A stretch of 64,000 nucleotides of DNA from Microbacterium testaceum (GTDB taxonomy: Bacteria > Actinomycetota > Actinomycetes > Actinomycetales > Microbacteriaceae), in contig NZ_CP121699.1 in the NCBI RefSeq assembly GCF_029761935.1, positions 3,038,001-3,102,000 on the forward strand, read 5' to 3'. Below, one piece after another: positions 9,851 through 64,000 of the stretch. Numbering within the stretch: position 1 is the stretch's first letter; each line of letters begins with the position of its first letter. Made by a program: the position numbers and the translations under genes. The notes beneath the pieces were generated by a model. It was not told the DNA's origin and searched no databases. It worked only from the letters and a program-made list of their open reading frames with translations.

Positions 9851-10323
9851 TCAGAACATGCGCGCGACCTGCGCGGGGTTCCGCCCGTAGTGATCGCGGT
9901 GGTAGCGCGCGAAGCGCGAGGCGCTTGAGAAGCCCCACCGCCGGGCCACCTCGGCGACCGATACCGGGACGCCCGCGCGCAACGCCTCGTGCGCGCCGAC
10001 GACGCGGACCAGGCGCAGATACTCCATCGGCGTCGTGTCGAGCGCGCGGCGGAACGCGTGCTGGAGCCCGCGGGAGGAGATCCCGGATGCCACGGCGATG
10101 TCCTCGAGCGTGAGAGGTTCCTTCGCGTGCGCCTCGATGTGGGCGATCGCGCGGCGCACGGTGCGCGGGGCGGCCCTGCGCTGGTGCGAGCGTTGCAGGG
10201 CGTCGACGTAGACGACACCCGCTGCGGGTCCACGCGCTCCAGTCGTGCGCTCGGCACGAAGCGCTGCCAGACGCGCTCTACGTCGTCGATTCCGCGCGAG
10301 CGGACCGTCAGCCTGTCAGCCAT
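9851..10323 (-). pseudogene. AraC-family regulator with large internal deletion
   Basis: ATG 10323 has a good GGAGGAA site and encodes about 35 residues (VRSRGIDDVERVWQRFVPSARL) that match the N terminus of the intact AraC regulator at 21170. The remaining coding signal is in another frame. From about nt 10225 it reads VVYVDALQRSHQRR and then the complete double HTH (LTLEDIAVASGISSRGLQHAFRRAL to RRWGFSSASRFARYHRDHYG), ending at 9851. Relative to the 311-residue homologue some 170-190 central residues are missing and the join is out of frame. A GTG at 10159 could still yield a free 102-residue HTH domain. Confidence 0.75.
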
Positions 10324-10480
10324 GGTGTTCCTCCCGCCGCGGCGAGGGGCGGCATCCCGTCTCTTCCCCGTACGAAGGCGGGGACGTGCGTGTCAAGGGG
10401 CGGGGTCGCGGGCGGTGCGCCCCGTTTGATGAGGGGACCGCTGATCCCGGCGGTGACGTGCGTCCCACGAAAGGACCCCC

Positions 10481-10840
10481 ATGAGCGACGCTTCGATCGA
10501 CCCGACCCCCGACGCGACGACCCCGGCCGCCGACGTGGGTATCGCGGGCGTGCAGCCCCTGCGCGACGGCGACACCTCCATCGAGCCCGACCCGACGCTC
10601 GACCCCGCGCAGGCGGAGTGGGACGCCACGACGGCCCTCGACGAGGGTGCCGACCCCGACGACATCAACCCGGCGACCGCGACGGGCGCCGACCCGGCGG
10701 AGATCCCCGCCGATGACAGCGACATCCCGCTCGAGGACATCCACCCCGAGTCCACCGGCACCGACTCCCAGGGCATGGACCCGGGCGTGGTCGAACTCGG
10801 CGAAGAAGGCCAGGGCGATCTCGCTCCCGAAGACCTCTGA
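10481..10840 (+). CDS. Small acidic protein of unknown function
   Basis: 119 residues, very rich in Asp, Pro, Ala and Glu (for example GADPDDINPATATGADPAEIP), with no Cys and no membrane segment. It is likely disordered or extended. The ATG follows GAAAGGACCCCC. The third-position GC pattern supports coding and it ends at a clear terminator. Similar short acidic proteins are common near stress genes in Microbacterium. Function not recognised. Confidence 0.65.
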   Translation: MSDASIDPTPDATTPAADVGIAGVQPLRDGDTSIEPDPTLDPAQAEWDATTALDEGADPDDINPATATGADPAEIPADDSDIPLEDIHPESTGTDSQGMDPGVVELGEEGQGDLAPEDL

Positions 10841-10851
10841 CCCACCCTCGA

Positions 10852-10884
10852 AAGCCCCGGGCCCGTTCGCGACGCCCGGGGCTT
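10852..10884 (+). terminator. Intrinsic terminator after acidic protein gene
   Basis: AAGCCCCGGGC (10852-10862) pairs with GCCCGGGGCTT (10874-10884). It starts 12 nt after the stop codon. Confidence 0.8.
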
Positions 10885-11004
10885 CGCTGCGTCCCTCGCG
10901 CACGCGGCGACGGACGGGCGGGGCACCGCGGCACTCTCCGATCGCGCGGGCGCAAAGGCCAGACCCTTGACAAGCGACGTCGTCATCGCGCCCAGGCGCG
11001 CGAA

Positions 11005-11030
11005 AGGGGCGGCCCCGCAGGACCGCCCCT
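11005..11030 (-). terminator. Terminator of the hsp20 gene
   Basis: AGGGGCGG and CCGCCCCT arms with a 10-nt loop, ending 14 nt beyond the hsp20 stop on the minus strand. The TTTCG run follows in the direction of transcription. Confidence 0.65.
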
Positions 11031-11043
11031 CGAGATCGCGCCG

Positions 11044-11499
11044 TTACTGCTCGATCAGCTGAGGCGTGCTCTCGTGCGCCTCGATGACGCCGTCGCGCTC
11101 GTCGGTCGAGACGGCGATGCGGCGGGGCTTCGCCTTCTCGCTGACGGGGATCGTCACGCTCAGCACGCCGTTGCGGTACGACGCGCTGATGCCGTCGGTG
11201 TCGATGCCCTGGCCGAGGTTGAGCTGGCGGACGAACGACGCCGTCTCGCGCTCACGCGTGATCCACTTGACGCCTTCGCCCGAGCCGAGGGTGCGCTCGG
11301 CGCGAATGGTGAGCAGCTGGCCGTCGACGTCGATGTCGACCGAGCCGGGGTCGACACCGGGCAGGTCTGCGGCCAGCACGTAGTGGTCGCCGTCGCGGTA
11401 GAGGTCCATCGGCATCCGTCGCGGACCACCGCCGCGGCGGGCGTCGAGGAGCGTCGACGCGAGGCGGTCGAGGTCGCGGAAGGGGTCGTAGGTGGCCAT
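11044..11499 (-). CDS. Hsp20/alpha-crystallin small heat-shock protein
   Basis: 151-residue small heat-shock protein that binds unfolding proteins without ATP. The alpha-crystallin domain spans about residues 38-135 (HYVLAADLPGVDPGSVDIDVDGQLL, LNLGQGIDTDGISASYRNGVLSVTIPV). It keeps the GVL motif and ends in a polar tail where an IXI-like anchor would sit. Start ATG 11499 is preceded by AAAAGGAGAACGACC. The upstream region holds both a HAIR-like and a CIRCE element, so heat-shock control by HspR and HrcA is likely. Confidence 0.93.
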   Translation of the reverse strand: MATYDPFRDLDRLASTLLDARRGGGPRRMPMDLYRDGDHYVLAADLPGVDPGSVDIDVDGQLLTIRAERTLGSGEGVKWITRERETASFVRQLNLGQGIDTDGISASYRNGVLSVTIPVSEKAKPRRIAVSTDERDGVIEAHESTPQLIEQ

Positions 11500-11552
11500 G
11501 GTCGTTCTCCTTTTCGATCGGTCGGGACTCGGCATCCCGGATGTTCTGTGAA

Positions 11553-11573
11553 GTTGAGTCGGTACGGCTCAAC
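11553..11573. promoter_or_regulatory. HAIR-like HspR operator
   Basis: GTTGAGT (11553-11559), 7-nt spacer, GCTCAAC (11567-11573). This matches the architecture of HAIR (CTTGAGT-N7-ACTCAAG), the HspR site of actinobacteria, with a few substitutions. It lies 54-74 nt upstream of the hsp20 ATG. Confidence 0.75.
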
Positions 11574-11583
11574 TGCACTCAGA

Positions 11584-11610
11584 TTAGCACTCACCCTTGG
11601 AGAGTGCCAA
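11584..11610. promoter_or_regulatory. CIRCE element (HrcA operator)
   Basis: TTAGCACTC (11584-11592), 9-nt spacer, GAGTGCCAA (11602-11610). This differs from consensus TTAGCACTC-N9-GAGTGCTAA at one position of the second arm. It is 11 bp from the HAIR-like site, in front of hsp20. Confidence 0.88.
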
Positions 11611-11743
11611 GACTCGGGCGCGCGATTGTGGCCCACGTCGCGGCGCCCCACAATCCCCGCGCGTGAAGGGCGGAAACAGACGTTTCGTAGCCCTCACGCG
11701 CCCCCGGTCACCCGGCCATCCCCCCGGCGCCGTGAGGAGAGAC

Positions 11744-12624
11744 ATGTACTTCCACCGGCAAGAACCGCCGACTCCGCCACCCCCGACAAGCCCGACGCGG
11801 TCTACGCCCGCAAACTCCAGGAGGTGCTCGGCGGGCAGTACGGCGAGATCTCCGTCGCGATGCAATACCAGTTCCAGGCCTGGAACATGCACATGCCCGG
11901 CAAGTACCGCGACCTGGTGTTCGGCATCGGCGCGGAGGAGATGGGCCACGTCGAGATGCTCGCGATCATGATCGCCCAGCTGCTCGAGAAGTCGCCGCTC
12001 GGGATCACCGAGGAGGCCGTGCAGGACGACCCGACCGTGGCGGCCGTGATCGGCGGCACCGACATCCAGCACGGGATCGTCGCGGGCGCCGGCGCGCGCC
12101 CCGTCGATTCCAACGGCAACCCGTGGCAGGGGAGCTTCATCACCGCGAGCGGCAATCTGCTCGCCGACTTCACCGCGAACGCGAACGCCGAGATGCAGGG
12201 CCGTGTGCAGGTCGCGCGGCTCTATCACCAGACCGACGACCACGGCGTGAAAGATCTGCTCGCCTTCCTGCTGGCGCGCGACACGATGCACCAGAACCAG
12301 TGGGCAGCGGCCGCCGCCGAGTTGCAGGCCGAGGGCTACGAGAAGCTCCCCGTGCTCAGCAACTTCCCCCTCGACAAGGAGGACCGCGACGTGGCGTACC
12401 AGTACATCAACTTCAGCGACGGCGCCCAGGCCGGCGACGGCACGTGGGCCTCGGGCCCGACCCCCGACGGCAGGGGCGAGTTCACCTACCTGCCCGAGCC
12501 CCCCGCGGGCGTGCCCATGCCCCCGCCCACCAAGCCCGACGTGCGGTTCTACGGGACGACCGAGCTGCCGAACACGCTCGAGAAGCTCGCCGGGCGCGCG
12601 CAGGACGCGCTGAACAAGGAATGA
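11744..12624 (+). CDS. Manganese (non-heme) catalase, 5' end frameshifted
   Basis: Dimanganese catalase that dismutates H2O2. Metal ligands are visible: Glu in GEISVAMQYQFQAWN, Glu-Glu-x-x-His in GAEEMGHVEML, a Glu in NANAEMQGRV, and His in ARDTMHQNQW. The ATG 11744 with perfect GAGGAGA encodes MYFHRQE, the expected N terminus, but is one frame off from the body, which begins PDKPDAVYARKLQEVLGGQYG. Adding one base near 11767-11775 would join them. The body frame has no ATG, GTG or TTG just upstream, so this is a real frameshift or a sequencing error. The stop overlaps the next ATG. Confidence 0.82.
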
Positions 12625-13006
12625 GCGGGACGGATGCCGCGACGCCGGGGCCCTCGACGGTCTCGGCGCCGCGGAGCGGGGCGAGCTTCCCCGCGATGCG
12701 AGCGGCCAAGGTGCCTCGGGCGATCGTGGCGGGGCCGTACGGGCACCCGTTCCACCCGGTGGCGGTGACCATCCCCATCGGGGCCTGGTCGTCGAGCCTG
12801 GTGTTCGATCTGCTCAGCCTGGCCGCCGACGATCCGCGTGGATTCGCGCAAGGCTCGCGCTGGCTCATCGCCATCGGGCTCGGGGGAGCCGTGGGCGCCT
12901 CGGTGCTCGGGCTGCTCGACATGTCGCGCATCCCGAAGGGCACCCCCGCTCACCGCACGGCGCTCGCGAGAACACGCAGCGAGAGGGCTTCGAGACCGCA
13001 GCCTGA
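12621..13006 (+). pseudogene. DUF2231-like membrane protein, apparently internally deleted
   Basis: ATG 12621 overlaps the catalase stop (ATGA). The first 115 residues are good DUF2231: GPYGHPFHPVAVTIPIGAW, then two membrane helices, then LLDMSRIPKGTPAHRTAL. Normally further helices follow. Here the frame continues instead into an Arg-rich tail that runs through the downstream terminator to 13130. In another frame the next bases read ARENTQREGFETAA and stop at 13004-13006, a credible family C terminus just before the terminator. The simplest reading is an out-of-frame deletion near nt 12965 that removed the last helices. Confidence 0.55.
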
Positions 13007-13017
13007 AGCTGTCCACG

Positions 13018-13047
13018 GGACCCCGGATGCCATGGCATCCGGGGTCC
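13018..13047. terminator. Perfect 30-bp palindromic terminator
   Basis: A perfect palindrome whose half-site is GGACCCCGGATGCCA, followed by TTCCC. It lies between the DUF2231 gene and the convergent SDR gene. Each half contains the genome-frequent heptamer GGATGCC/GGCATCC. Confidence 0.8.
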
Positions 13048-13059
13048 TTCCCGGTCTGG

Positions 13060-13950
13060 TCAGCGCGGGCGGCGCAGCGGGATGCGCGACCAGCCCCCGC
13101 TCACCGCGCCGGGGTCGTGCTGCGGGGTGAGCACCGCTCCGGTGGTCGCTGCGGCGGGGCGACGGCGCAGCCCCAGGGCATGCTGCAGCGCACGGATGAA
13201 GCGGTCGTACACGCGCGGAGCGAAGAACTGCAGGGGGCGGGTCACGAACTGCGCGGCTCCCACCCCGACCTCGTGTCGGGGTCCTCGCGCCACCCGCACG
13301 ATGGCCCGGGCGACGCGGTCGGCCGACACCACCGGCGGGAGCGGGAAGGGCGTGCGCCCCGTCGAATTGGCGGCGCGCTGGTAGATGGGCGTGTCGATGC
13401 TCGCCGGGAGCACGATCTTCACCCGGATGCCGCGATGAGCGAGCATCTCCTGCCGCAGCGACCGCGTGAACCCGAGCAGTCCGTGCTTGGCGGCGACGTA
13501 GGACGAGACGTACGGGCCCGCCACCTGCGAGTACAGGGAGCCGACGAAGACGATCGTGCCCCGGCCCGCCGCGCGGAAATGGGGGATGACGGCGCGGGCC
13601 GCGCGCATGTGCCCGGTGAGGTTCGTCTCGATGACGCGGTCGCGCACCTCGTCGGGGGTGTCCTCGACAGAGCCGTACGAGAAGACGGAGGCGGAGGCGA
13701 CCCACACGTCGATCCGCCCGAACCGCATCAGAGCGAGGTCCGCAGCGCGCCGGGGGCCATCGGCGCGGGCGAGGTCGATCGACGCCGTCTGCACCTCGGC
13801 GCCGCGGGCTCGGCACTCCGCCGCGGCCGACGCGAGCGCCTCATCGTCTCGGGCCACCAGCACGAGACGCGCCCCCGCTCGGGCGAAACGCAGTGCGGTG
13901 GCACGGCCGATCCCGCGGGATCCTCCAGTGATGACGACGACCTGGGGCAT
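13060..13950 (-). CDS. Short-chain dehydrogenase/reductase
   Basis: 296-residue SDR. The NAD(P) motif is TGGSRGIGRATAL (residues 8-20). The catalytic Ser is in FVGSLYS and the Tyr/Lys pair in SSYVAAKHG near residue 150. An RFARAGARLVLVARDDEAL segment suggests NADP(H). The extended C-terminal part (residues 200-296) is rich in Arg. It is divergent from the UbiA gene, so it may or may not belong to the adjacent polyketide cluster. The substrate is not evident. Confidence 0.88.
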   Translation of the reverse strand: MPQVVVITGGSRGIGRATALRFARAGARLVLVARDDEALASAAAECRARGAEVQTASIDLARADGPRRAADLALMRFGRIDVWVASASVFSYGSVEDTPDEVRDRVIETNLTGHMRAARAVIPHFRAAGRGTIVFVGSLYSQVAGPYVSSYVAAKHGLLGFTRSLRQEMLAHRGIRVKIVLPASIDTPIYQRAANSTGRTPFPLPPVVSADRVARAIVRVARGPRHEVGVGAAQFVTRPLQFFAPRVYDRFIRALQHALGLRRRPAAATTGAVLTPQHDPGAVSGGWSRIPLRRPR

Positions 13951-14187
13951 CGGGGCTCCTCGAGGCTTGTGCGGAACGCTGCTGCCCCGGCTGTCGCGAC
14001 GGTAGGCGGCGACGGGTCGGATGCCGCGGGGGTTGACGGACGGCGGCAGCCACCGGCGCGTGCACGACGGCGGGCCGCGCGGTCGACACGCCGTCCCCGG
14101 ATGCCGGTCCGCGGCGCGTCGTGGGAGATTCCGCCGCTATGCACGACGGAGGCCGGCGAACCGCCGCCGCGCGGTAGCGTCGGACGC

Positions 14188-15015
14188 GTGACGGATAGCG
14201 TGACCCCGAGGTCGCCCCTGCGGGCCCTGTGGGGCGCGACCCACCCCGGGCCCACGCTCGTCGTGACCGTCCTGTCGCTCGCCCTGGGCGTCGCCGCGGG
14301 ACTCGAGACCTGGCGCCTCGCGGTGCTGGTCGCCGCGGTCTTCGCCGGTCAGGTCTCGGTCGGTCTCTCGAACGACGCGATCGACGGTGCCCGCGACGCC
14401 GCGGTCGGACGCACCGACAAGCCCATCGCCGGGGGAGCGGTCACCCCGGAGCGCGCGCTCGCGGTGGCCGTGGCATCCGCGATCCTCGCCGTCGTGCTGT
14501 CGCTGCCGCTCGGACCAGGCCTCGTCGCTGCTCACGCCGTCGCTCTCGCCTCGGCCTGGGCCTATAATGCGGGGCTCAAGTCGACGCCCGTCTCGATTGC
14601 GCCTTTCGTGCTGAGCTTCGGACTCTTCCCCTCGTTCGCGACCCTGTCCCTTTCGCCGCCGATGCTCGCCGCGTGGTGGGCGTCGCTGGCGGGGGCGGCC
14701 CTCGGTGCCGCCGTCCACCTGACCAACGTCGTCCGCGATCTCGACGACGACCGCCGCACGGGGGTGCGGGGCCTGCCGCACCGACTGGGCGCGCGCCGTT
14801 CCGTGGTGCTCGCGGCGGTGGGGATCGCCGCCGGGGCGCTCGCCGTCTTCTTCGGGACGGATGCCACGGCCCTCGGCGTCGCCTTCTTCGTCGCCGTCCT
14901 CGCGCTCGCCGTCGGCGCCGCGGTGCTGGTGTTCGTGCGCCCTCCCGGGCGCGCGGTGTTCCAACTCACGATGCTCGCCGCCCTGGTGCTGGCCGCCCAG
15001 CTCGTGGCCGCCTGA
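14188..15015 (+). CDS. UbiA-family prenyltransferase
   Basis: 275-residue integral membrane prenyltransferase. Both Asp-rich motifs that bind Mg-prenyl diphosphate are present: NDAIDGARD (about residue 61) and VRDLDDDRRTG (about residue 182). Eight or nine hydrophobic helices fill the rest. The GTG start has TAGCGT seven nt upstream (14175-14180) and no ribosome-binding site, suggesting a leaderless transcript. It converges on the type III PKS operon. Prenylation of the polyketide or an aromatic intermediate is inferred from location; a menaquinone-type role is the alternative. Confidence 0.87.
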   Translation: MTDSVTPRSPLRALWGATHPGPTLVVTVLSLALGVAAGLETWRLAVLVAAVFAGQVSVGLSNDAIDGARDAAVGRTDKPIAGGAVTPERALAVAVASAILAVVLSLPLGPGLVAAHAVALASAWAYNAGLKSTPVSIAPFVLSFGLFPSFATLSLSPPMLAAWWASLAGAALGAAVHLTNVVRDLDDDRRTGVRGLPHRLGARRSVVLAAVGIAAGALAVFFGTDATALGVAFFVAVLALAVGAAVLVFVRPPGRAVFQLTMLAALVLAAQLVAA

Positions 15016-15168
15016 GACTCGGCCGGTCGACGTCGCGGATGAGGCCGGTCGATCGTCGGCCGCGCCCAACGGCGGGCGCCGACCCCGGCACGCCGCGGCA
15101 ACGGCGTCTTCGGCGGCGTGCCGCGCACGGCATCCGCCGCTGTGCACGTCTCCCGCCGGCGCGGCGGC

Positions 15169-16281
15169 TCAGGTCCCGGGTGCCGCCCGGTCGAACCGCA
15201 TCGCGTACGCCCGGGTGAACAGCGCCCCGCCCGTTCCACGCAGGCCCGCGCGCAGCCCCGCGGTACGCACCGCGTGCGCGACGGGGGCGGCGGCCCGACC
15301 GAGCAGGGTGTTGAGGAACGCCAGGCGCGCGGCGTGGCGGGCGGACGCGAGCCGGTCGCGCTCCCAACGGTCCAGGCCCGCCTCGTCGCCCGCGCGGACC
15401 CACGGGGCGAGCAGCGGCGCGAGGGTCAGCGCGTCGAGCAGTCCGAGGTTCATGCCCTGTCCGCCGATCGGGCTCACCTCGTGCGCGGCGTCGCCGACGA
15501 CGATCACCCGGCCCCGACGCAGTGCGGGAGCCACCGCCCGCCGGACGCCGAAGGTCGAGGCGCCCGCGGTGTCGACCTCGAGCCCCGTGCGTCGAGCCAC
15601 GGCGTCGTGGAGGAAGCCCGCGGCATCCGGAACCTCTTCCCGACCCGCCCAGGCGACGAGCCGTCGGCGCCCGCCGGGGAGGGGGAACGATTCGACCACG
15701 CCGTCGCGCTCGAGGTGCACGCGCGCGATCGGTCCGCCCGGCGCGGTGACGTCGGCCATGACGTAGCGGTCGGGGTAGTGGTGGGTGCGCACGGCCCCGT
15801 CGCGGTACACCAGCGAGCGTCCCGCCCATCCGGAGGCCACGACCACGACCTTCGCGCGCAGCTCGCCGCCGCCCGCGACCCCGACCCGCACGCCGCCGCC
15901 GTCCTGTCGCAGCCACTCCACGGTCACGCCGCGCCGCACCGGCGGGGCCAGGGCCGTCAGCACCTCGATCGTGTCGGACTGCGGCAGCGCCGCCACGTAC
16001 GGATGCCGCGCCCGCAGCCGGTCGAAGTGGATCGCGGCGAGCAAGCGCCCGTCGGCCTGCGCCTCTCCGCGGGCGATCCGCACCGCGCGGTCGAGGATCC
16101 CGTCCGTGGCGCCCGAGGCCTCGAGCAGGGCGAGGGCGGGGGAGTGGATGCCGATCGCCCGCGTTCCCGCGCCGACCTCGGTGCGGCGCTCGACGAGGGC
16201 GACGTCGACGCCGCGCGCACGCAGGTCGGCGGCCAACGCCAGTCCCACGGGGCCGGCGCCGACGACGAGGACCTCAGTCAT
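15169..16281 (-). CDS. FAD-dependent monooxygenase/oxidoreductase of the T3PKS operon
   Basis: 370-residue flavoprotein of the PHBH/UbiH-like class. VLVVGAGPVGLALAADLRARG is the N-terminal FAD fold. GRVIVVGDAAHEVSPIGGQGMNLGLLDAL near residue 270 is the second FAD motif of aromatic hydroxylases. ATG 16281 overlaps the methyltransferase end by 8 nt, so the two are co-translated. In the Streptomyces srs operon the flavoprotein hydroxylates the alkylresorcinol ring to a quinone; a similar step is likely here. Confidence 0.88.
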   Translation of the reverse strand: MTEVLVVGAGPVGLALAADLRARGVDVALVERRTEVGAGTRAIGIHSPALALLEASGATDGILDRAVRIARGEAQADGRLLAAIHFDRLRARHPYVAALPQSDTIEVLTALAPPVRRGVTVEWLRQDGGGVRVGVAGGGELRAKVVVVASGWAGRSLVYRDGAVRTHHYPDRYVMADVTAPGGPIARVHLERDGVVESFPLPGGRRRLVAWAGREEVPDAAGFLHDAVARRTGLEVDTAGASTFGVRRAVAPALRRGRVIVVGDAAHEVSPIGGQGMNLGLLDALTLAPLLAPWVRAGDEAGLDRWERDRLASARHAARLAFLNTLLGRAAAPVAHAVRTAGLRAGLRGTGGALFTRAYAMRFDRAAPGT

Positions 16282-16978
16282 TCCCGGCCTCCCCGCGGGC
16301 GACCGCGAGCACCCGGAACGGCGCCGGGGTATCCACGCGCCAGGGCGAGCCGAGAGCCGCGGCGAGCTCGGGCGCGCGATAGCTTCGGCGGATCGAACGG
16401 AGGCCGTCGACGCGCAGGAACGTGCCCGCCGACAGCGGCGCGATGCCGACGGCGTACAGGGCGTACGCCAGACGCCCGCGGGCGATGTCGGCGTGCAGCA
16501 CGGTGCCGGTCGACAGGGCGAGCGAGTCGCCGGTGAAGCTCGCCAGCGCCGCCGCGTCGAGGTGGTGCAGCACGTGGTTCGAGATGACGAGATCGAAACG
16601 CTCCCCGGCGGCGAGCAGGGCCGTCGAGTCCTGCGCGACGAAGCGCACCCCGGGGCGGCCGCGGTCGCGAGCGGCTGAGATCGCGCGCGGGTCGGGGTCG
16701 GCTCCGACGCACTCGACCGTGAAGCGGTCGCGCGCGGCCAAACCCGCCAGCCGCACGAGCACGTCCCCTCCACCGCAGCCCAGGTCGAGAACGCGCGCGG
16801 GGCGCCCCAGGGCGCGCAGTTCCGGCCGCACCCGCGTGCGGTAGACGTGCCCCCAGGCCGAGACGAGGCGGTTCACGAGGTCGAAGCGGCGGTAGGTGGC
16901 CGCGAGCGCCCGGGGATCGCAGTCGGGGTCGTCCATCATCTCGGTCAGCGCGACGTCGCGCTGAGACAACCCCGTCAC
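16274..16978 (-). CDS. Class I SAM-dependent methyltransferase of the T3PKS operon
   Basis: 234-residue methyltransferase. The SAM motif is VLDLGCGGGDVLVRLAGL near residue 65, followed by GADPDPRAI (acidic motif II) and FDLVISNHVLHHLD (motif IV region). The GTG at 16978 overlaps the PKS stop as GTGA. An O- or C-methylation of the polyketide product is inferred. It is not the ICMT-like type of SrsB, so the chemistry may differ from that of Streptomyces phenolic lipids. Confidence 0.88.
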   Translation of the reverse strand: MTGLSQRDVALTEMMDDPDCDPRALAATYRRFDLVNRLVSAWGHVYRTRVRPELRALGRPARVLDLGCGGGDVLVRLAGLAARDRFTVECVGADPDPRAISAARDRGRPGVRFVAQDSTALLAAGERFDLVISNHVLHHLDAAALASFTGDSLALSTGTVLHADIARGRLAYALYAVGIAPLSAGTFLRVDGLRSIRRSYRAPELAAALGSPWRVDTPAPFRVLAVARGEAGND

Positions 16979-18069
16979 GCCGCCGGGCGGCGCAGTGTCA
17001 GACGCGCCGCCTCCACCGTGAGCCCCGGGCCGAACGCGAGAGCCGCGACGCGGTCTCCGTCGCCGCGCGCGGAGTCCGCGAGCAGGTCGCGCAGGATGAA
17101 CAGCAGCGTCGCGCTCGACATGTTGCCGTGCTGACGCAGCACCTCCCGCGAGGGGGCCAGGGCCGTGGCATCCAGCGACAGGGCGCTCTCCACCCGGTCG
17201 AGGATGCTGCGTCCGCCGGGATGCACCGCCCACGCGTCGACCTCGTCGAGGTCGCCGATCACGTCGGCGGCGATCGCCGAGATCTCGCGGCCGATGATGC
17301 GCGGAACCTCGGGGGTCAGCGTCATCTCGAACCCCGAGTCGCCGACGGTCCACGCCATGTCCTTCTCGCCCTCGTCGGTCACGTGCGTCGCGAAACCGTC
17401 GAGGTCGAAGCCCGCCCGGGAGGGGTCTCCGGATGCCACGACCGCGGCCCCCGCCCCGTCGGCGAACACCGAGGCGGCGACGATCTGGTCGGGGTGGGAC
17501 GAGGTCTGCCAGTGCAGCGAGCACAGTTCGGTGCACGAGACGAGGACGACCGCGTCGGGGTCGTCGCCGACGATGCGCGCCGCGAGACGCAGGGCCGGGA
17601 TCGCCGCCGCGCAGCCGATGAACCCGAGGTGGTAGCGCTCGACGGTGGGGGAGAGGCCGAGGTCGCGGACCAGGTGATAGTCGGGTCCGGGCGCGAACAT
17701 CCCGGTGCACGAGACGGTCACGACGTGGGTGATGGCATCCGGAGTCCGTCCCGACCCGGCGATCGCGGCGCGCGAGGCCTCCGCGGAAAGGGGCGGAGCG
17801 GTGCGGCGGTACTCGTCGTTGCGCGCTCCGGTCGGGGGCATGAGCAGGGTGTCGCCGTCGAGGACCCCGAGCGCTCCGCCCTCACCGCCCGCGAGCTGCG
17901 GGAGCACCACGTGGCGGGTGTCGATGGCCGCCGCATCGAACGCGGCGCCCACCAGACGTTGGGCCTTGCGGTCGAATCCGGGCTGTGCGGCGAACAGGTC
18001 ACGCAGGGTCGACTGGTCGACACGAGTGTCGGGCAGGGCCGTGCCGATCGAGAGGATGCGGGCGGTCAT
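16975..18069 (-). CDS. Type III polyketide synthase (chalcone/stilbene synthase-like)
   Basis: 364-residue homodimer-type type III PKS that condenses malonyl-CoA onto an acyl-CoA starter. The Cys-His-Asn triad is visible: Cys121 in VTVSCTGMFAPG, His in AWAVHPGGRS (about 283) and Asn in QHGNMSSAT (about 315). GFIGCAAAIPAL is the usual second conserved block. First gene of an overlapping PKS-methyltransferase-flavoprotein operon, the same order as srsABC. A long-chain acyl starter and alkylresorcinol- or alkylpyrone-type product are inferred from context, not from residues. Confidence 0.93.
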   Translation of the reverse strand: MTARILSIGTALPDTRVDQSTLRDLFAAQPGFDRKAQRLVGAAFDAAAIDTRHVVLPQLAGGEGGALGVLDGDTLLMPPTGARNDEYRRTAPPLSAEASRAAIAGSGRTPDAITHVVTVSCTGMFAPGPDYHLVRDLGLSPTVERYHLGFIGCAAAIPALRLAARIVGDDPDAVVLVSCTELCSLHWQTSSHPDQIVAASVFADGAGAAVVASGDPSRAGFDLDGFATHVTDEGEKDMAWTVGDSGFEMTLTPEVPRIIGREISAIAADVIGDLDEVDAWAVHPGGRSILDRVESALSLDATALAPSREVLRQHGNMSSATLLFILRDLLADSARGDGDRVAALAFGPGLTVEAARLTLRRPAA

Positions 18070-56508: not shown

Positions 56509-56566
56509 TCGCTCGTCGGACGGTGGCCTCCTCGGACCCGCTCGAGCCGTGCGAGCGGGGCGACTG

Positions 56567-58231
56567 ATGGTCGACGACGACACCGGTCTCATCGCCGGGC
56601 GCTTCCGCGTCGAGGGTCTCCTCGGCACCGGGGGAACGGCATCCGTCTTCCGCGCTCGGGATGAGGTGACCGGTCAGACCGTCGCCGTCAAACTGCTGCA
56701 TCCCCACCTTTCTCAGACCGACACCGTCCGCGAGGCCTTCCTCCGCGAGGGCAGGCGGACGGCGCACGTCTCCCACCCGTCGATCGTCGCCATCGTCGAC
56801 ATGGGGACCTTCCTCGAGCACGGCATCCCCATCGCCTGGATCGCCCAGCAGATCGTCGAAGGCGTGACCCTCGCGGAGCACGTCCGTGCCACCGGTCCGC
56901 TCTCCGCGGTCCACGCCGGGGCGGTCGCCGGGGACATCCTCGATGCGCTGGGTGCCGCTCACGCGGTCGGTCTCGTGCACCGCGATGTGTCGCCCGCGAA
57001 CGTGCTCGTGCGCGTCGACGACGAGGGCCGCCCCCGATCGACGCTCCTCGATTTCGGCCTCGCCGATGCGGCGGGAGAGACGGCCCACGGCGACGACGTT
57101 CTGCGCAGCTCCGTGTCGCCGGTCACTGCGGGGGTGGTCGGAAACGCCGAGTTCGCCTCGCCCGAGCAGCTGAGCGGGCAGCCCGTCGGCCCGCGTGGCG
57201 ACCTGTACCAGGTCGGCGGGATGCTGTACTTCGCGCTCACCGGTCGCGCCCCGTTCTCGGGGAGTGATCGGACCGCCGTCATCCGGGCCCACCTGCACGC
57301 CCCGCCTCCCGTCCCGTCCGTGGCCGTTCGGTCCGTCCCCGGTGCGCTCGATCGCGTGGTCGTGCGATCGATGCTCAAGGAGCCGGCGGACCGCTTCGCC
57401 GACGCCGCCGAGATGCGCGCGGCGGTCCTCGATGCGGTCACCCCCGTGCGAGCGCCCGCCCCCGGCGATGACGAGGTGTCGTCGACACGGGTCCTGACGG
57501 CCGCCCCTCTCGGTGCCGGTTCGGCACCGGCCCCCGCTCCGGTGGACGAGTCGACGCGACACGGACCCCGGTGGGGAGCGATCGCGGCCATCGTGCTGCT
57601 GCTGGCGGGCACGGCGGCCGCCGTCCCCCTCATGGCGAACGCTGGTCGTGCGGCGCCCGCGGCCGAGCCGTCCGCGGCGGCCTCGGCTCCGGTGCCCACC
57701 GCGACGACGACCTCGACGCCGCAACCGACCGCGTCGGACCCCGGCACGCCCGCACCGATCGCCACCGCGCTCGTGCCCGCCTTCGGCTCCCTCGACGACA
57801 CGCGACTCGCGCTCGCGGAGGCGGGGTTCGTCGTCGGTGACATCACCGAGCGCGACGCGCCCCAGTCCGGCGGGACGGTGCTCTCCTCCGACCCGGCCCC
57901 CGGGACGGCGGTCGCGCGCGGTTCCGCGGTGCGCCTGGTCGTGGCATCCGGATCCAATCTCGTCCCGGACGTCGTCGGAATGGATGCCGCGGGAGCGGCC
58001 TCGTCGATGCGCGCAGCGGGGTTCGTCCCGGCGCAGACGACCGTCGCCTCCGACCGACCGACCGGGACCGTCGTCGGCGTCGAACCCGCGGCGGGAAGCG
58101 CCGTCCGCCTCGGAAGCGCCGTGACGATCCTCGTCGCCGCAGCCCGGGCCACTCCGACGCCGACCCCGCCGTCTCCGTCGTCCACGCCGACGCCGGTCCC
58201 GACCGCCTCGCCGACGGGCGGACCGCGATGA
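56567..58231 (+). CDS. PASTA-domain serine/threonine protein kinase
   Basis: 554-residue PknB-type receptor kinase. Gly loop LLGTGGTASVFRARD (about 20-35), Lys in VAVKLL (about 41), HRDVSPANVLV (about 139) and LDFGLA (about 162) define the kinase. The canonical Lys of HRDxKPxN is Ser here. One membrane helix is near 337-357. Two PASTA repeats cover about 402-461 and 462-525, and the tail is Thr/Pro-rich. PASTA domains bind peptidoglycan fragments. ATG 56567 is favoured over GTG 56549. It probably signals wall state. Confidence 0.9.
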   Translation: MVDDDTGLIAGRFRVEGLLGTGGTASVFRARDEVTGQTVAVKLLHPHLSQTDTVREAFLREGRRTAHVSHPSIVAIVDMGTFLEHGIPIAWIAQQIVEGVTLAEHVRATGPLSAVHAGAVAGDILDALGAAHAVGLVHRDVSPANVLVRVDDEGRPRSTLLDFGLADAAGETAHGDDVLRSSVSPVTAGVVGNAEFASPEQLSGQPVGPRGDLYQVGGMLYFALTGRAPFSGSDRTAVIRAHLHAPPPVPSVAVRSVPGALDRVVVRSMLKEPADRFADAAEMRAAVLDAVTPVRAPAPGDDEVSSTRVLTAAPLGAGSAPAPAPVDESTRHGPRWGAIAAIVLLLAGTAAAVPLMANAGRAAPAAEPSAAASAPVPTATTTSTPQPTASDPGTPAPIATALVPAFGSLDDTRLALAEAGFVVGDITERDAPQSGGTVLSSDPAPGTAVARGSAVRLVVASGSNLVPDVVGMDAAGAASSMRAAGFVPAQTTVASDRPTGTVVGVEPAAGSAVRLGSAVTILVAAARATPTPTPPSPSSTPTPVPTASPTGGPR

Positions 58232-58254: not shown

Positions 58255-58341
58255 GTTCACCTTCGAGCGTCTCTCGTTCACCACCCCGCCAGCCGACGTG
58301 GACAGTCGAACCGGGTGCCGTTCACGGCTGGCTCCTAGCCT
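58255..58341 (+). promoter_or_regulatory. PHO-box-like repeats and -10 box before pstC
   Basis: GTTCACC at 58255-58261 and 58276-58282 and GTTCACG at 58320-58326 (44 nt, four 11-nt steps, after the second). TAGCCT at 58336-58341 is a good -10, so the last repeat overlaps the -35 position, as at PhoP-activated promoters. Confidence 0.65.
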
Positions 58342-58490: not shown

Positions 58491-59510
58491 ATGACGGACA
58501 CCACGACGGCGGTGCTGCCGCCGACGACGGACGCGGCGAAGCCGACACCACGCTCGTTGAGGAGCGCTCCCGTCATCGCCGATCGGGTGTTCCGCACCAC
58601 CGCGTATGCCGCGGGAACCATCACCGTCGCGGTGATGCTCGCCGTCGGGATCTTCCTCACGGCGCGCGCCGGCGATGCCCTCGCGGTGGCGGGGCCGTCG
58701 TTTCTCACGACGCAGGAATGGTCGCCCGAGACCGGCACGTTCGGTGTCGCCGCCGTGCTGTTCGGGACGGTGACCATCGCCCTGGTGGCCATGGCCATCT
58801 CTGTGCCGCTGGCGATGGGGACGGCGTTGCTCATCAGCGAGATCGTGCCGCCACGGGCGCGGGGCCTTCTCATCACGATGGTCGACCTGATGGCGGCCGT
58901 GCCCAGTGTCGTGTTCGGGCTGTGGGGCGTGTTCTTCCTCCAGGCGGGCGTCATCCCGGTCGCCCAGTGGATCTCGACCTACTTCGGGTGGATCCCGATC
59001 TTCCGCGTCGCCGACGAGACCGGCGCACGGCTGACGGACGCCGGTGCGTACACCTCCTCGGCGTTCATCGCGGGGATCGTCGTGGCGCTCATGGTCGTGC
59101 CGACCCAGACCTCGGTGATGCGCGAGGCGTTCTCGCAGGCGCCGCTCGGCGAGCGGGAGGGGGCCCTCGCGCTCGGTTCGACCCGATGGGGGATGATCCG
59201 CGCCGTCGTGCTCCCCTTCGGTCGGGGCGGCATCATCGGCGGCACCATGCTCGGCCTCGGACGCGCCCTCGGCGAGACCATCGCCGTGGTCATGATCATC
59301 TCGCCGATCTTCACGATCAACACCGAGCTCCTGAAGACCGGCACCAACTCGGTGTCCGCGCTCATCGCCCTCCGTTACGGGGAGGCGAGCCAGTTCGGCC
59401 TGTCCGCCCTCATGGCGGCGGGGCTCGTGCTGTTCATCATCACGTTGATCGTCAACTTCACCGCGTCGACGATCGTCGCGCGCAGCCGGTCCGGGGCGGA
59501 GAGCAACTGA
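58491..59510 (+). CDS. pstC: Phosphate ABC transporter permease PstC
   Basis: 339 residues with six membrane helices and a long periplasmic loop after helix 1. LLITMVDLMAAVPSVVFGLWGVFF is the PstC signature. EREGALALGSTRWGMIRAVVLP is the EAA loop that contacts the ATPase. The stop overlaps the pstA ATG by 1 nt. No pstB lies in the window. Confidence 0.95.
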   Translation: MTDTTTAVLPPTTDAAKPTPRSLRSAPVIADRVFRTTAYAAGTITVAVMLAVGIFLTARAGDALAVAGPSFLTTQEWSPETGTFGVAAVLFGTVTIALVAMAISVPLAMGTALLISEIVPPRARGLLITMVDLMAAVPSVVFGLWGVFFLQAGVIPVAQWISTYFGWIPIFRVADETGARLTDAGAYTSSAFIAGIVVALMVVPTQTSVMREAFSQAPLGEREGALALGSTRWGMIRAVVLPFGRGGIIGGTMLGLGRALGETIAVVMIISPIFTINTELLKTGTNSVSALIALRYGEASQFGLSALMAAGLVLFIITLIVNFTASTIVARSRSGAESN

Positions 59511-60847
59511 TGGCGATCCTCACCCCCGAGGCCCCGACGGCCACGGCGCGAGACGAGTCTCCGCGTCACGCCTCGCGCACGTCGATTCCGCGTCGCACGG
59601 GCGCCGTCGGGGAGCGACGCGATCTGCGGACGGTTCCCTTCGGCGACCGATTCGACCTCATCGGCAGTGGGGCGGCGGCCATCGCCGTCTCGACACTGAT
59701 GTTCGGATGGCTCACCCCCATGACGGGTGTTGTCGGGTGGGTGGTGCTGTCGTTCATCGGCTTCCTCGGCATCTACGCGGTGCTGACCGCGATGCGCGCC
59801 GACCGTCTCGCCATCAGCGAGCGGGTCATGACCGCGTTGTTTTACTCCGCGGGCGTGCTCCTGCTCGGGGCGCTGGCCTTCGTGGTGTTCTTCACCCTCG
59901 TGCGCGGCTCGTCGGCCCTGTTCCACCCGAACTTCTTCACCGAGACGATGAAGCTCGCCGGTCCCCTCGACCCGCTGACGATGGGTGGCATCGCGCACGC
60001 CATCGTCGGAACGCTCATCCAGATCAGCATCGCCCTGACGATCACGATCCCGCTCGGGGTGACCACGGCCGTCTTCCTGAACGAGATCGGCGGGCGCTTC
60101 GCCCGCTTCGTGCGGACCATCTCGGATGCCATGACCGCTCTGCCCTCGATCGTCGCGGGACTGTTCGTCTACGCCGCCGTCGTGACCCTCATCACGAATC
60201 AGCGCTCGGGGTTCGCGGCATCCCTCGCCATCAGCGTGATGATGCTCCCGATCATCATCCGGGCCTCCGACGTGGTGCTGCGCCTGGTGCCTCACAACCT
60301 GCGCGAGGCGTCGTACGCGCTCGGCACGAGCCGGTGGCGCACGGTGTGGAGCGTCGTCCTGCCCACCTCGCGCTCCGGTCTCGTCACGGCCGTGATCCTC
60401 GGCACCGCCCGCGGAATCGGCGAGACCTCTCCGGTGCTGCTCACCTCGGGCGTCACCGCGGAGATGAACCTGAACCCCTTCTCGGGTCCGATGATCTCGC
60501 TCCCGCTGCAGGTGTTCGACTTCGTGAAGTCCCCGGAGCCGAGCATGATCGCCCGCGGGTTCGGCGCCGCCGCCACCCTCGTGCTGCTCGTGCTGACCCT
60601 GTTCATCGTCGCCCGCCTCATCGGTGGTCGAGGGCCCGGCCAGCTCTCGGACCGTCAGCGTCGTGCCGCGTCCGCCGCGTCGGCTCGGGATCTCGTCCGC
60701 ATCGAGGGGGAGTCCGCTGCCGCCGCTTCGCGTGCCGGACGACGCTCCATGCCGCCGGGCCGTCCGCCCGAGGACCTCGAGCGTCGCCTCTCGCTGCGCG
60801 CGCTCACCGCACGCTTCCACCGATCCACCGAGGAGAACCCGTCGTGA
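59510..60847 (+). CDS. pstA: Phosphate ABC transporter permease PstA
   Basis: 445 residues, longer than the usual 280-300. The N terminus (1-110) is a polar Arg-rich stretch plus two extra membrane helices, and the C terminus (about 375-445) is a cytoplasmic Arg/Ser/Glu-rich tail. The core has ISDAMTALPSIVAGLFVYAAV and the EAA loop REASYALGTSRWRTVWSVVLP. It overlaps pstC by 1 nt and pstS by 4 nt. Confidence 0.93.
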   Translation: MAILTPEAPTATARDESPRHASRTSIPRRTGAVGERRDLRTVPFGDRFDLIGSGAAAIAVSTLMFGWLTPMTGVVGWVVLSFIGFLGIYAVLTAMRADRLAISERVMTALFYSAGVLLLGALAFVVFFTLVRGSSALFHPNFFTETMKLAGPLDPLTMGGIAHAIVGTLIQISIALTITIPLGVTTAVFLNEIGGRFARFVRTISDAMTALPSIVAGLFVYAAVVTLITNQRSGFAASLAISVMMLPIIIRASDVVLRLVPHNLREASYALGTSRWRTVWSVVLPTSRSGLVTAVILGTARGIGETSPVLLTSGVTAEMNLNPFSGPMISLPLQVFDFVKSPEPSMIARGFGAAATLVLLVLTLFIVARLIGGRGPGQLSDRQRRAASAASARDLVRIEGESAAAASRAGRRSMPPGRPPEDLERRLSLRALTARFHRSTEENPS

Positions 60848-62418
60848 ATGTCCGTCCCCGCCTGGCCCGCTTCGCCGCGGTGCTCGCGGTCGTCTCTCTC
60901 GTCGCGCTAGCCCCGTCGCCCGCACAGGCCGACGGGTACGTGCCGATCTCCGGATCCGGCTCGACCTGGTCGCAGAACGCGCTCGATCAGTGGCGTAAGA
61001 ACGTGGCCAGCAACTACGGCATGACGGTGAACTACTCGGGGACGGGGTCGAGCGCCGGGCGCAGTGATTTCATCAAAGAGACCGTGGACTTCGCCATCAG
61101 CGAGATTCCGTTTCAAGCGAATCCCGAGGACGGCTCACCCCCCGAGAAGCCGACGACCGGGTACGCCTACATGCCCATCGTCGCGGGTGGAACCTCCCTC
61201 ATGTACAACCTGAAGATCGGGGGTAAACGGGTCACCAATCTGCGACTCTCCGGCGAGGTCATCGCGAAGATCTTCTCGGGGCAGATCTCCAAATGGAACG
61301 ACGCGGCGATCCAAGCCGACAACCCGGCCCTCGCGATGCCCGATCGACCGATCACCCCCGTCTACCGCTCGGACGGCTCGGGTACGAGCGCGCAGTTCAC
61401 GCTGTGGATGTCGAAGCAGTACGGAAACATCTGGACGCAGGGGATGCGATCGCAGTTCCCGCAAGTCAATGCGTCGTTCAAGGGTCAGAACGGATCGCTC
61501 GGTGTCGCTGGCTACGTCAGCCAGGACTACGGCGAGGGGGCCATCACCTACGTGGAGTACTCGTACGCCATGAAGTCCGGGTTCCCGGTGGTGAAGGTGC
61601 TCAACAAGGCCGGCTACTACGTCGAGCCGACATTCCAGTCGGTCGCGGTCGCGCTGATGTCCGCCGCCATCAATCCCGACCTGACCCAGAACCTCGACGG
61701 TGTGTACAACAGCAACGACCCACGTACTTACCCCATGTCGAGCTATTCGTACATGATCGTCCCCACCGCCACGAACAAGATCTTCACGGCGGAGAAAGGC
61801 AAGACCCTGAGTCGCTTCGCCGACTACATGCTGTGCGAAGGGCAGCAGCAGGCGGCCGCGCTGGGATATTCCCCCCTGCCCATGAATCTCGTACAGGCCG
61901 GTTCCGAAGTGCTGAAGTCGATCCCGGGCAGCGAGGGAGGCGTCGACTTCAACGCGTGCAACAACCCCACGTTCAAGCCGGGTGACTCTCCCGCCAACAA
62001 CCAGCTCGCGGCGACGGCGCCGCAGCCACCTGACTGCGACAAGCAGGGCGCAACTCAGTGCGTCGAAGGAACGGGAGGCGCACAGGAAGCGACTCCGTCA
62101 ACGGGTTCGGGTGGCGTCAGCGGCGGTGCAAACAGCGCAGCAGCCGCCGCGGGTTCCGGGGGTGCTGCCACCGCCGGTTCCTCGGCGACGGCAGCAGGCT
62201 CTCCGTCCGGCAGCGCCGGAGATGCGCCGGTGTACGACGCGAACGGCAACCTGGTATCGGGTGCAGGCGGAGCAGCCGTGAATGCCGCTGTCTCTTCACC
62301 CTTCACGCTCGACGACAACGGCTGGGGCGTGCCACAGACCGCGATGCTCGCGGCGGGACTGCTGATGGTCGCAGCTGTGCTCATTCCACCAGTCATCGGC
62401 CGTCGTTCGCGGCGCTGA
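60844..62418 (+). CDS. pstS: PstS-like phosphate-binding protein with C-terminal membrane anchor
   Basis: 524 residues against about 350-380 for ordinary PstS. Signal peptide 1-30. ISGSGSTW (about 38), GTGSSAGRSDF (about 63) and RSDGSGTSAQF (about 176) are phosphate-binding loops. The usual SD pair that contacts phosphate is SE (VDFAISEIPF, about 86). After residue 395 comes a Gly/Ser/Ala-rich linker and a membrane helix (about 498-518) ending GRRSRR, so it is tethered through the C terminus rather than by a lipid. The GTG overlaps the pstA stop. Confidence 0.9.
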   Translation: MNVRPRLARFAAVLAVVSLVALAPSPAQADGYVPISGSGSTWSQNALDQWRKNVASNYGMTVNYSGTGSSAGRSDFIKETVDFAISEIPFQANPEDGSPPEKPTTGYAYMPIVAGGTSLMYNLKIGGKRVTNLRLSGEVIAKIFSGQISKWNDAAIQADNPALAMPDRPITPVYRSDGSGTSAQFTLWMSKQYGNIWTQGMRSQFPQVNASFKGQNGSLGVAGYVSQDYGEGAITYVEYSYAMKSGFPVVKVLNKAGYYVEPTFQSVAVALMSAAINPDLTQNLDGVYNSNDPRTYPMSSYSYMIVPTATNKIFTAEKGKTLSRFADYMLCEGQQQAAALGYSPLPMNLVQAGSEVLKSIPGSEGGVDFNACNNPTFKPGDSPANNQLAATAPQPPDCDKQGATQCVEGTGGAQEATPSTGSGGVSGGANSAAAAAGSGGAATAGSSATAAGSPSGSAGDAPVYDANGNLVSGAGGAAVNAAVSSPFTLDDNGWGVPQTAMLAAGLLMVAAVLIPPVIGRRSRR

Positions 62419-62564: not shown

Positions 62565-64000
62565 GTGTACAACCACCTCGACGGCCAGGCCCACCACGGG
62601 CCCGGTCGCGCCGCGTCGGAACCTGCGCGCCGCGGACGCCGTCTGCGGTCCTGGGCGCTGTCCGCGCTCTCGGGGACACTGTGCGCCGTCGCCGTCTTCG
62701 CAACGGTGTCGGTAGCGGGCATTGCGCCGTCGTCGGCGCGGGCCGACGACGTCCTCTCGTCGACGGTGACCGTGACGTCGAAACAGCAGCATCCTGCGCT
62801 CGCCGACGCCCCGATGCCTGATCTGTCGGTGACGGTGTCCCAGACGCGGGACCTCGGCGCCCAGGGCGTCCAGCTCAGTTGGACGGGCGCGAAGAAGTCA
62901 ACGCCACCGAGCGGACAGATCGGCGGCGAGAACTTCCTCCAGATCTTCCAGTGCTGGGGCGATCTCCTCGGCTCCGACGGCAAGCCCGTGCTCGATGATG
63001 CCGGAAACCGACAGCCCGACCGCACCACGTGCCAGTACGGCGGATTCAACACCCCCGGTGCCGCCCGCGACGGTGTGCGCGAACCCGGCACAGTGGCGGA
63101 AGAGGACCGCCCCTGGTCGACGAACGCCGACGGCGACGACCCATTCGCCGCGCCGGTGACCGCCGTACCGTTCCGTTCGGCGACAGGCAAGACCATCGCC
63201 CCCATCGTCGACGGAAAAGCAGTTCCGGATGCCGGCAACCTGGCCAGCAACGAGTTCTACACCGCGAAGACCACGAACGAGATTTCGTGGGCGGGGAGCG
63301 GCGCCGACGGCTCGGGGGTGGCGAAGTTCGAGCTCCAAACCGCCATGCAGTCGACCGGCCTCGGCTGCGGGACAGCCACCACCGATTCGACGGGAAAGAC
63401 GGTGGGCGCCGGGTGCTGGCTCGTGATCGTCCCTCGCCCGAAGAATGATGTCGGTCAGGCGCACATCACCAGCTCGGGTCTGTTCTGGGATGCGTGGAAG
63501 CATCGTCTGGCGGTCCATCTCGACTTCAAGCCGATCGGGGTGCGGTGCGCGTTCGGTGCGGCCGAACGTCAGCTCTCCGGCAGCGAGCTCGCTGCGATCG
63601 CGGTTCGCTCGTGGCAGCCCTCCCTCTGCAACACCAAGGGCGGCTCGATCTACTCCCTCCTGACCGGCAGCGAATCCGATGCGCTGACGGCCGCGAACAC
63701 TTCGAGCGCAGCGCCTTTGGCTCTGGCATCCGAGCCCCTTCCTGCCGAGCAGGGCGCAGGCCTGGTTTACGCGCCAATCGCATTGACCGGCGTGACCGTG
63801 GGATTTGCGATCGATCAGAATCCGCTGCCGCTGGATACCGTCCCCGCAGACGTGAAGAACAGGGCCGCCCTCCCGTTCGAGTCTCTCAAGCTCACGCCGC
63901 GTCTGGTCGCCAAGCTTCTCACCGCCTCGTACCGTGACGCACTCCCATACGGAGCCGATCTCTCGCACATCGGCTATAAGATCGCCGCGAACGCTGGACA
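62565..64000 (+). CDS. Large secreted PstS-like protein (partial, runs off the window)
   Basis: Open from GTG 62565 (AAAAAGGATC upstream) to the window edge, at least 478 residues. A signal peptide with a twin-Arg-like basic start (ARRGRRLR) and hydrophobic core ends near SSARA. The region to about residue 395 has several Cys (FQCWGDLL, TTCQYGGF, GLGCGTA, GAGCWLVIV, VRCAFG, SLCNTKG) and no family I recognise. Residues about 400-460 (VYAPIALTGVTVGFAI then LKLTPRLVAKLLTASY) align well with the PstS gene just upstream (YMPIVAGGTSLMYNL, LRLSGEVIAKIFSGQI). It is therefore a diverged substrate-binding protein with a big N-terminal extension. Confidence 0.85.
   Translation, partial: MYNHLDGQAHHGPGRAASEPARRGRRLRSWALSALSGTLCAVAVFATVSVAGIAPSSARADDVLSSTVTVTSKQQHPALADAPMPDLSVTVSQTRDLGAQGVQLSWTGAKKSTPPSGQIGGENFLQIFQCWGDLLGSDGKPVLDDAGNRQPDRTTCQYGGFNTPGAARDGVREPGTVAEEDRPWSTNADGDDPFAAPVTAVPFRSATGKTIAPIVDGKAVPDAGNLASNEFYTAKTTNEISWAGSGADGSGVAKFELQTAMQSTGLGCGTATTDSTGKTVGAGCWLVIVPRPKNDVGQAHITSSGLFWDAWKHRLAVHLDFKPIGVRCAFGAAERQLSGSELAAIAVRSWQPSLCNTKGGSIYSLLTGSESDALTAANTSSAAPLALASEPLPAEQGAGLVYAPIALTGVTVGFAIDQNPLPLDTVPADVKNRAALPFESLKLTPRLVAKLLTASYRDALPYGADLSHIGYKIAANAG

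What the first reader, a model, noticed from the sequence alone, without database searches (positions are those of the whole stretch)
62565..64000. Large secreted protein with a diverged PstS-like segment after a roughly 400-residue extension
The stretch at residues 400-460 matches the neighbouring PstS in order and spacing, including the VAKLL/IAKIF helix, but the preceding Cys-rich region matches nothing I know. A second, giant phosphate-binding-like protein behind pstS is not the textbook Pst layout. It could be a wall-spanning receptor that hands phosphate to the transporter, or one that captures an organophosphate.
Basis: partly seen in the sequence, partly recalled or inferred. Interest (0 to 1): 0.75.

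Follow-up and report, generated by a model that had tools for sequence, protein, structure and literature searches.

The report
Second phosphate-importer operon with surface scaffold
The odd gene encodes a probably membrane-tethered relative of the phosphate-binding protein PstS whose phosphate pocket looks altered, and it recurs in a second phosphate-importer operon of actinobacteria beside a sortase-like protein that lacks its catalytic residues, which suggests an undescribed surface machine for capturing phosphorus.

Summary

It is part of an operon: pstC-pstA-pstS-[gene]-small PBP-(Ig/WxL-like)-(WxLIP-like)-(membrane protein)-sortase-like-pstB. The order recurs in 81 examined loci as far as contigs reach; distant Actinomycetota keep pstC-pstA-pstS-[gene] plus the sortase-like gene. 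The sortase-like protein lacks catalytic His and Cys in all rows examined. PstS here is membrane-tethered, not a lipoprotein. In 21 of 21 gene-bearing genomes tested there is another, canonical-scoring PstA. GTTCACC (PHO-box word) is enriched before pstC.

Best reading: a probably Pho-regulated second Pst importer with a wall-associated scaffold, in which this protein is an adaptor or a receptor for a non-phosphate ligand. Assembly and function are inferred. I saw no description in the papers searched.

The parts
56549..58231 (+). Ser/Thr protein kinase with PASTA domains, upstream of the pst operon; a frequent neighbour, not proven part of it
   Evidence: Pfam Pkinase 105 bits, PASTA 78.6 bits; upstream on the same strand near pstC in 58 of 75 loci with pstC, also in L080 where the mechanically delimited ORFs overlap, and past the other end of the cluster in L038, L078, L079; no hit in 13
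58255..58325 (+). three GTTCAC(C/G) words at 58255, 58276, 58320: PHO-box-like
   Evidence: spacing 21 and 44, so the 11-bp phase is imperfect
58491..59510 (+). pstC
59510..60847 (+). pstA
   Evidence: TIGR00974 222.9 bits, cut-off 193.45
60844..62418 (+). pstS, 524 aa; no lipobox, C-terminal hydrophobic helix after a long linker
   Evidence: TIGR00975 228 bits, cut-off 205; C-terminal helix in 81 of 81 loci; lipobox-like word in 0 of 77 rows
62565..64000 (+). the gene of the finding, cut by the window end; complete gene L004:6565-9201 (window-equivalent 62565-65201), 878 aa. Downstream on the same strand in L004 (position = window - 56000): small PBP 9304-10446, Ig/WxL-like 10479-12047, WxLIP-like 12212-13312, membrane protein 13309-14121, sortase-like 14118-15080, pstB 15094-16413, LmeA-like 16424-17245
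62751..63557 (+). N-terminal beta-rich domain (residues 63-331) with C130, C156, C268, C284 and, at its end, C328
   Evidence: model pLDDT 94.1, pTM 0.92; no Pfam family
63555..64000 (+). start of the PstS-fold domain (residues ~331-783; the rest lies beyond the window)

Best explanation
The gene encodes a membrane-tethered, PstS-fold surface protein that is a regular component of a second, probably Pho-regulated Pst importer in Actinomycetota. Shown by sequence or model: PstS fold, N-terminal domain with conserved cysteines, C-terminal hydrophobic helix, changed phosphate-site residues, recurrent operon partners, an extra PstA per genome, enriched PHO-box words. Inferred: under phosphate limitation the operon makes a wall-associated assembly. 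Tethered PstS (phosphate site mostly intact) and, where present, a small secreted PBP catch the substrate and feed PstCAB. This protein, the sortase-like membrane protein without catalytic residues and, in many species, the WxL/WxLIP-like proteins form the scaffold that holds the binding proteins in or through the wall. Its own pocket, with conserved acidic residues, binds either a partner protein or a non-phosphate, perhaps cation-containing ligand.
For: Neighbourhood of 81 loci (home plus the 80 kept of 121 found), best match per gene, same strand: pstS 81, small PBP 77, Ig/WxL-like 76, pstC 75, pstA 75, WxLIP-like 72, membrane protein 71, sortase-like 70, pstB 69, LmeA-like 55. The 6 loci without pstC/pstA have under 1.8 kb before the gene; the 11 without the sortase-like gene and 12 without pstB have at most 5.2 kb after it. 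Order as at home in 76; in 5 only pstB and the weak LmeA-like match swap. Of 18 loci of a second set 17 keep pstC, pstA, pstS, sortase-like and pstB; of 12 of a third set 11 keep pstC, pstA, pstS, 9 the sortase-like gene and 8 pstB, the rest ending inside the cluster. In 21 of 21 gene-bearing genomes the number of PstA matches is one plus the number of such loci; 20 of 21 genomes without it have one. GTTCAC lies before pstC on the coding strand in 57 of 72 loci, on the other in 6; GTTCACC 2.61 per kb there, 0.44 per kb in the whole loci. C-terminal helix in PstS 81 of 81, in this protein 75 of 77. Pocket.
Against: No complex was modelled or measured. WxL and WxLIP matches lie below Pfam's cut-offs (18.8 against 25; 22.9 against 27.3 bits); these genes are missing from several distant operons, L051 lacks the WxLIP-like and membrane genes and L102 the small PBP although the contig continues, and in L117-L120 and L127 the order after the gene differs, with pstB in front in L119. 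The words before pstC are not in 11-bp tandem at home, unlike at the genome's canonical pstS. One of 21 genomes without the gene has extra PstA-like matches. D372 is Glu in only 10 of 24 distant relatives and often hydrophobic. Pocket residues were placed by sequence alignment and secondary structure, not by superposed coordinates.
Confidence: 0.5

Rival explanations
1. The protein is itself a second phosphate receptor that captures phosphate in the wall and passes it to PstS or PstCA.
For: Complete PstS fold in the model, PstS neighbour, tether. A loose profile alignment can place R517 on the PstS Arg.
Against: The loops are changed: Glu at 341 in 80 of 80 rows where PstS has Thr, Glu/Asp at 370 in 80 of 80, Asp at 519 in 77 of 80, no GSGT turn. 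Acid stays in distant relatives (341: 20 of 24; 370: 23 of 24; 519: 21 of 24), while Arg is not among the five commonest residues at 517.
Confidence: 0.12
2. The protein is a receptor for another ligand: an organophosphate, a metal-phosphate complex, a cationic compound or a wall polymer, which the second Pst imports or which anchors the complex.
For: A conserved but changed pocket, and D487, N494, D543, N550 in 24 of 24 distant relatives, in a stretch where PstS is shorter; the operon's PstS has Glu at the Asp56 position in 77 of 77 rows, so substrate preference may differ.
Against: No phosphatase among the home operon's genes by Pfam (other loci were not screened for one); PstS keeps the Arg, Ser, Gly and Thr/Ser of the site.
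Confidence: 0.25
3. The operon is a surface sensor: binding proteins and the N-terminal domain report phosphate or wall state to the neighbouring PASTA kinase or to PhoR-PhoP.
For: PASTA kinase gene upstream in 58 of 75 close loci.
Against: In the third, distant set the kinase is upstream in 1 of 11 loci with pstC, and importer genes are present wherever the contig reaches.
Confidence: 0.08
4. The surface genes form an adhesin or fibre that merely shares the operon with an importer.
For: Ig-like, WxL-like and sortase-like genes resemble adhesin clusters; the small PBP is fused to Ig-like repeats in some relatives.
Against: Besides PstS two of the surface proteins are PBP folds; the gene stays behind pstS in all sets; the sortase-like protein lacks the catalytic residues.
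Confidence: 0.05

Closest known systems
PstSCAB phosphate importer (PstS: TIGR00975; PstA: TIGR00974)
   Same: pstC, pstA, pstS, pstB present; PstS and PstA over the curated cut-offs; PstS fold in this protein
   Different: two further PBP-fold proteins, PstS with a C-terminal helix instead of a lipobox, surface genes between pstS and pstB, PstA scoring as a separate group (200-229 against 264-290 bits)
WxL gene clusters of Firmicutes (PMC10599100: abstract and passages seen; PMC9772566 and PMC5817068: passages seen)
   Same: a secreted protein with W-x-L words next to a membrane-anchored protein with a weak WxLIP_PGBD match
   Different: embedded in a pst operon, in Actinomycetota, matches below Pfam cut-offs; PMC9772566 puts over 91% of 938 WxL sequences in Firmicutes
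Class E sortases (NF033747)
   Same: sortase-domain match (Pfam 44.3 bits, cut-off 26.6; class E 58.1 bits, cut-off 160)
   Different: catalytic His column Arg in 69 of 69 rows with a residue there, Cys column Ala/Ser/Thr in 69 of 69; 2 of 71 rows gapped; hydrophobic C-terminus
Neocarzinostatin-type beta sandwich (for the N-terminal domain)

Membership tests
PstS phosphate-binding proteins | PstS fold | tested here: met
PstS phosphate-binding proteins | curated family score (TIGR00975 cut-off 205 bits) | tested here: not met
   39.9 bits, C-terminal part only
PstS phosphate-binding proteins | phosphate-site residues (Thr, Ser, Asp, Arg, Ser-Gly-Thr; site recalled, not from a call) | tested here: not met
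   columns in 80 rows and 24 distant relatives, placed by alignment
PstS phosphate-binding proteins | phosphate binding | not testable with these tools
   needs purified protein
Pst importer (the operon) | PstS and PstA over curated cut-offs, with pstC and pstB in the cluster | tested here: met
   PstS 228/205, PstA 222.9/193.45; PstB 333.8, just under its 343.2, E 5.3e-100; order
Pho regulon | PHO box: 11-nt direct repeats with GTTCACC (PMC6283541, PMC4415409, passages seen) | tested here: inconclusive
   word enriched and oriented but tandem 11-bp phase not kept in the home operon
Active sortase | catalytic His and Cys | tested here: not met
   absent in 69 of 69 rows with residues there; His position fixed by alignment to 5uus, both by the genome's own class E-like sortase L113; absent in distant loci too
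WxL protein | Pfam WxL score | tested here: not met
   18.8 against 25 bits
WxL protein | two W-x-L words near the C-terminus | tested here: inconclusive
   two in the home protein; two in 16, one in 51, none in 10 of 77
Neocarzinostatin family | fold of the N-terminal domain | tested here: inconclusive

The most novel reading that the evidence does not exclude
Actinobacteria possess a second kind of Pst system in which the importer is integrated with a dedicated wall-borne machine: a pocket-altered PstS-fold scaffold, a dead sortase turned structural or chaperone part, and tethered and free binding proteins that relay a phosphorus compound through the wall to PstCAB. That would be a new class of accessory complex for ABC importers and a new use of the sortase fold.
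Probability: 0.35. Interest if true: 0.82.

Novelty: new variant of a known kind. Interest (0 to 1): 0.62.

Why it matters
How nutrients cross the thick wall of Gram-positive bacteria to reach membrane importers is usually taken to be free diffusion (my own knowledge, not from a call). A recurrent operon that ties an importer to tethered binding proteins and wall-surface parts makes that assumption testable. A sortase fold that lacks both catalytic residues in every relative examined points to an enzyme reused for something else. Of the 120 best of 770 relatives, those that carry a name are 'hypothetical', 'uncharacterized' or 'PBP domain-containing' proteins; they would gain a context, and naming such genes phosphate-binding protein or sortase by similarity would be checked.

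Tried and rejected
Rejected: that the first 400 residues are all extension (the PstS fold starts at ~331). Rejected: an artefact of frame or assembly (770 relatives; 80 named loci). Rejected: that the sortase-like protein is a working sortase.

Limits of counts: searches used 80 of the 121 relatives found. L112, fetched with the second set, matched only by its PstS and was left out of the 18. One search was given 21 gene-bearing genomes: 18 of the 22 matches (left out: G038 and G094; G092, a weak match; the own genome, done) and 3 of the 12 non-own matches; and 21 of the 78 genomes without a match; only matches at E<=1e-40 counted. Columns come from MAFFT alignments of mechanically found ORFs; partial ORFs were dropped by length (below 700 aa for this gene, 330 for PstS, 300 for the small PBP). 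Gene counts include overlapping wrong-frame ORFs; one search is the stricter recount. Of the two other sortase genes of the genome only L113 showed the searched motif; L114 was not read further.

Full report
What was checked. The finding covers the last 1436 bases of the window. The genome that holds the window is available (one contig, 3,380,022 bases), and the window is its stretch 3038001-3102000. A 19-kb stretch, L004, was taken (L004 position = window position - 56000). The gene starts with GTG at 62565 behind an AAAAAGGA stretch and ends at L004:9201, giving 878 residues.

The pocket. In PstS of the same operon the phosphate-site residues (recalled for E. coli) are mostly kept in 77 rows: Thr 77, Ser 69 (Thr 8), Arg 77, Ser 77, Gly 77, Thr 32/Ser 45; the Asp56 position is Glu in 77 of 77. 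In the protein of the finding the loops at the same places read GSEL, ESD and PQGRSD: E341 80 of 80, E370 76 plus 4 Asp, D372 78, R517 79, D519 77 of 80. In 24 distant relatives (26-37% identical to the home protein) acid is kept at 341 (20), 370 (23) and 519 (21); position 372 is Glu in 10 and often hydrophobic; at 517 Arg is not among the five commonest residues; all six cysteines and R446, K450, Y456, D487, N494, D543, N550 are invariant. A loose profile alignment can place R517 on the PstS Arg; its loss in distant relatives speaks against a phosphate site either way. The small PBP keeps Thr, Ser and Ser-Gly-Thr in 75 of 75 rows but has Pro (66) or Leu (9) at the Arg position.

The operon. 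On L004 the order is pstC, pstA, pstS, the gene, a small PBP_like_2 protein (49.6 bits), an Ig protein with W-x-L words, a WxLIP-like membrane protein, a membrane protein without family, a sortase-like protein, pstB and an LmeA-like gene. Gaps are -4 to 164 bases. In 81 loci (stricter recount) pstS precedes the gene in 81; pstC and pstA are found in 75, and the 6 others have under 1.8 kb before the gene; the sortase-like gene is found in 70 and pstB in 69, and the 11 and 12 others have at most 5.2 kb after the gene. The order is the home order in 76; in 5 only pstB and the weak LmeA-like match swap. L051 lacks the WxLIP-like and membrane genes. Relatives include Propionibacteriaceae and a Cellulomonas bin. 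In a second set (18 loci) 17 keep pstC, pstA, pstS, sortase-like and pstB; L098 is a short contig. In a third set drawn from order and phylum (12 loci) 11 keep pstC-pstA-pstS before the gene, 9 the sortase-like gene and 8 pstB, the rest ending inside the cluster; but in L117, L118, L120 and L127 the small PBP and other genes stand elsewhere, and in L119 pstB comes first. A variant lacks the WxL/WxLIP genes and carries a small PBP frame with Ig-like Big_3_5 repeats (three such frames scanned).

The dead sortase. Of 71 rows, 69 have residues at the sites: the catalytic His column is Arg in 69, the catalytic Cys column Ala 65, Ser 3, Thr 1. The His column is fixed by alignment to 5uus and both by comparison with the genome's own sortase L113, which has GHR and TTCSP. 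Seventeen further rows show Arg and no Cys, and nine distant ones Arg or, in L119, Lys, and no Cys. The catalytic Arg was not judged.

Tethers. Complete C-termini carry a hydrophobic helix in 81 of 81 PstS and 75 of 77 of this protein, but in 1 of 76 small PBPs. None of 77 PstS rows has a lipobox-like word, whereas the other, canonical PstS of this genome has LAGC. PstS has 112-229 residues after residue 365, enough for a long flexible tether (inference).

A second Pst. The home genome has another pst set at about 3166-3170 kb. In 21 gene-bearing genomes the number of PstA matches equals one plus the number of these loci; the operon's PstA scores 200-229 bits and the other 264-290. Of 21 genomes without the gene, 20 have one PstA; G018 has further matches. 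The gene is patchy: 22 of 100 genomes in the family sample including one weak match, 13 of 149 in the order sample including two weak ones, and 22 of 246 in the phylum sample, of which 6 score above 170 bits, the rest covering mostly the PstS-like part.

Regulation. GTTCACC is given as the most conserved PHO-box word of Streptomyces coelicolor (passages in PMC6283541 and PMC4415409). It occurs at 2.61 per kb in the 300 bases before pstC (50 of 72 loci) against 0.44 per kb in the whole loci, and GTTCAC is on the coding strand in 57 of 72 and on the other in 6 of 72. The word is common in this genome generally (24 in the window, 5.6 expected), relatives are not independent, and the 11-base phase is imperfect at home (58255, 58276, 58320), so Pho control is likely but not shown. 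The canonical pstS has GTTCACC twice at 11-base distance.

Linked kinase. A PASTA Ser/Thr kinase gene lies upstream in 58 of 75 loci with pstC, also in L080, and past the other end in three; in the third, distant set it is upstream in 1 of 11, so it is a frequent neighbour rather than a core part.

Reading. What stays wherever the contigs reach is pstC-pstA-pstS-this gene, with a sortase-like gene and pstB in the cluster. I take it as a surface-integrated second Pst importer. The protein of the finding is most likely a scaffold or partner-binding member with a changed pocket; whether it binds a ligand, and which, is open. In the papers searched I saw no description of it.

Noticed in passing
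L004:14118-15080 (beyond the window end): Sortase-fold membrane protein in the pst operon without catalytic His and Cys in all rows examined; a conserved pseudoenzyme.
   Followed up: yes
L004:9304-10446: Small secreted PBP_like_2 protein with most of the phosphate loops but Pro/Leu at the Arg position; fused to Ig-like repeats in some relatives.
   Followed up: partly
L004:10479-13312: WxL-like and WxLIP-like proteins in an actinobacterium, below Pfam cut-offs; a paper seen in passages puts over 91% of WxL sequences in Firmicutes.
   Followed up: partly
56549-58231: PASTA Ser/Thr kinase gene upstream of the operon in 58 of 75 close loci.
   Followed up: partly
60844-62418: The operon's PstS has Glu at the Asp56 position in 77 of 77 rows, which may shift anion preference.
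   Followed up: partly
L004:15094-16413: PstB, read from its first ATG, carries about 185 residues before the ATPase domain; the true start was not tested.
   Followed up: no
G018 contig C8:163186-164927: A genome without this gene has extra PstA-like genes side by side: perhaps another second Pst-like system.
   Followed up: no
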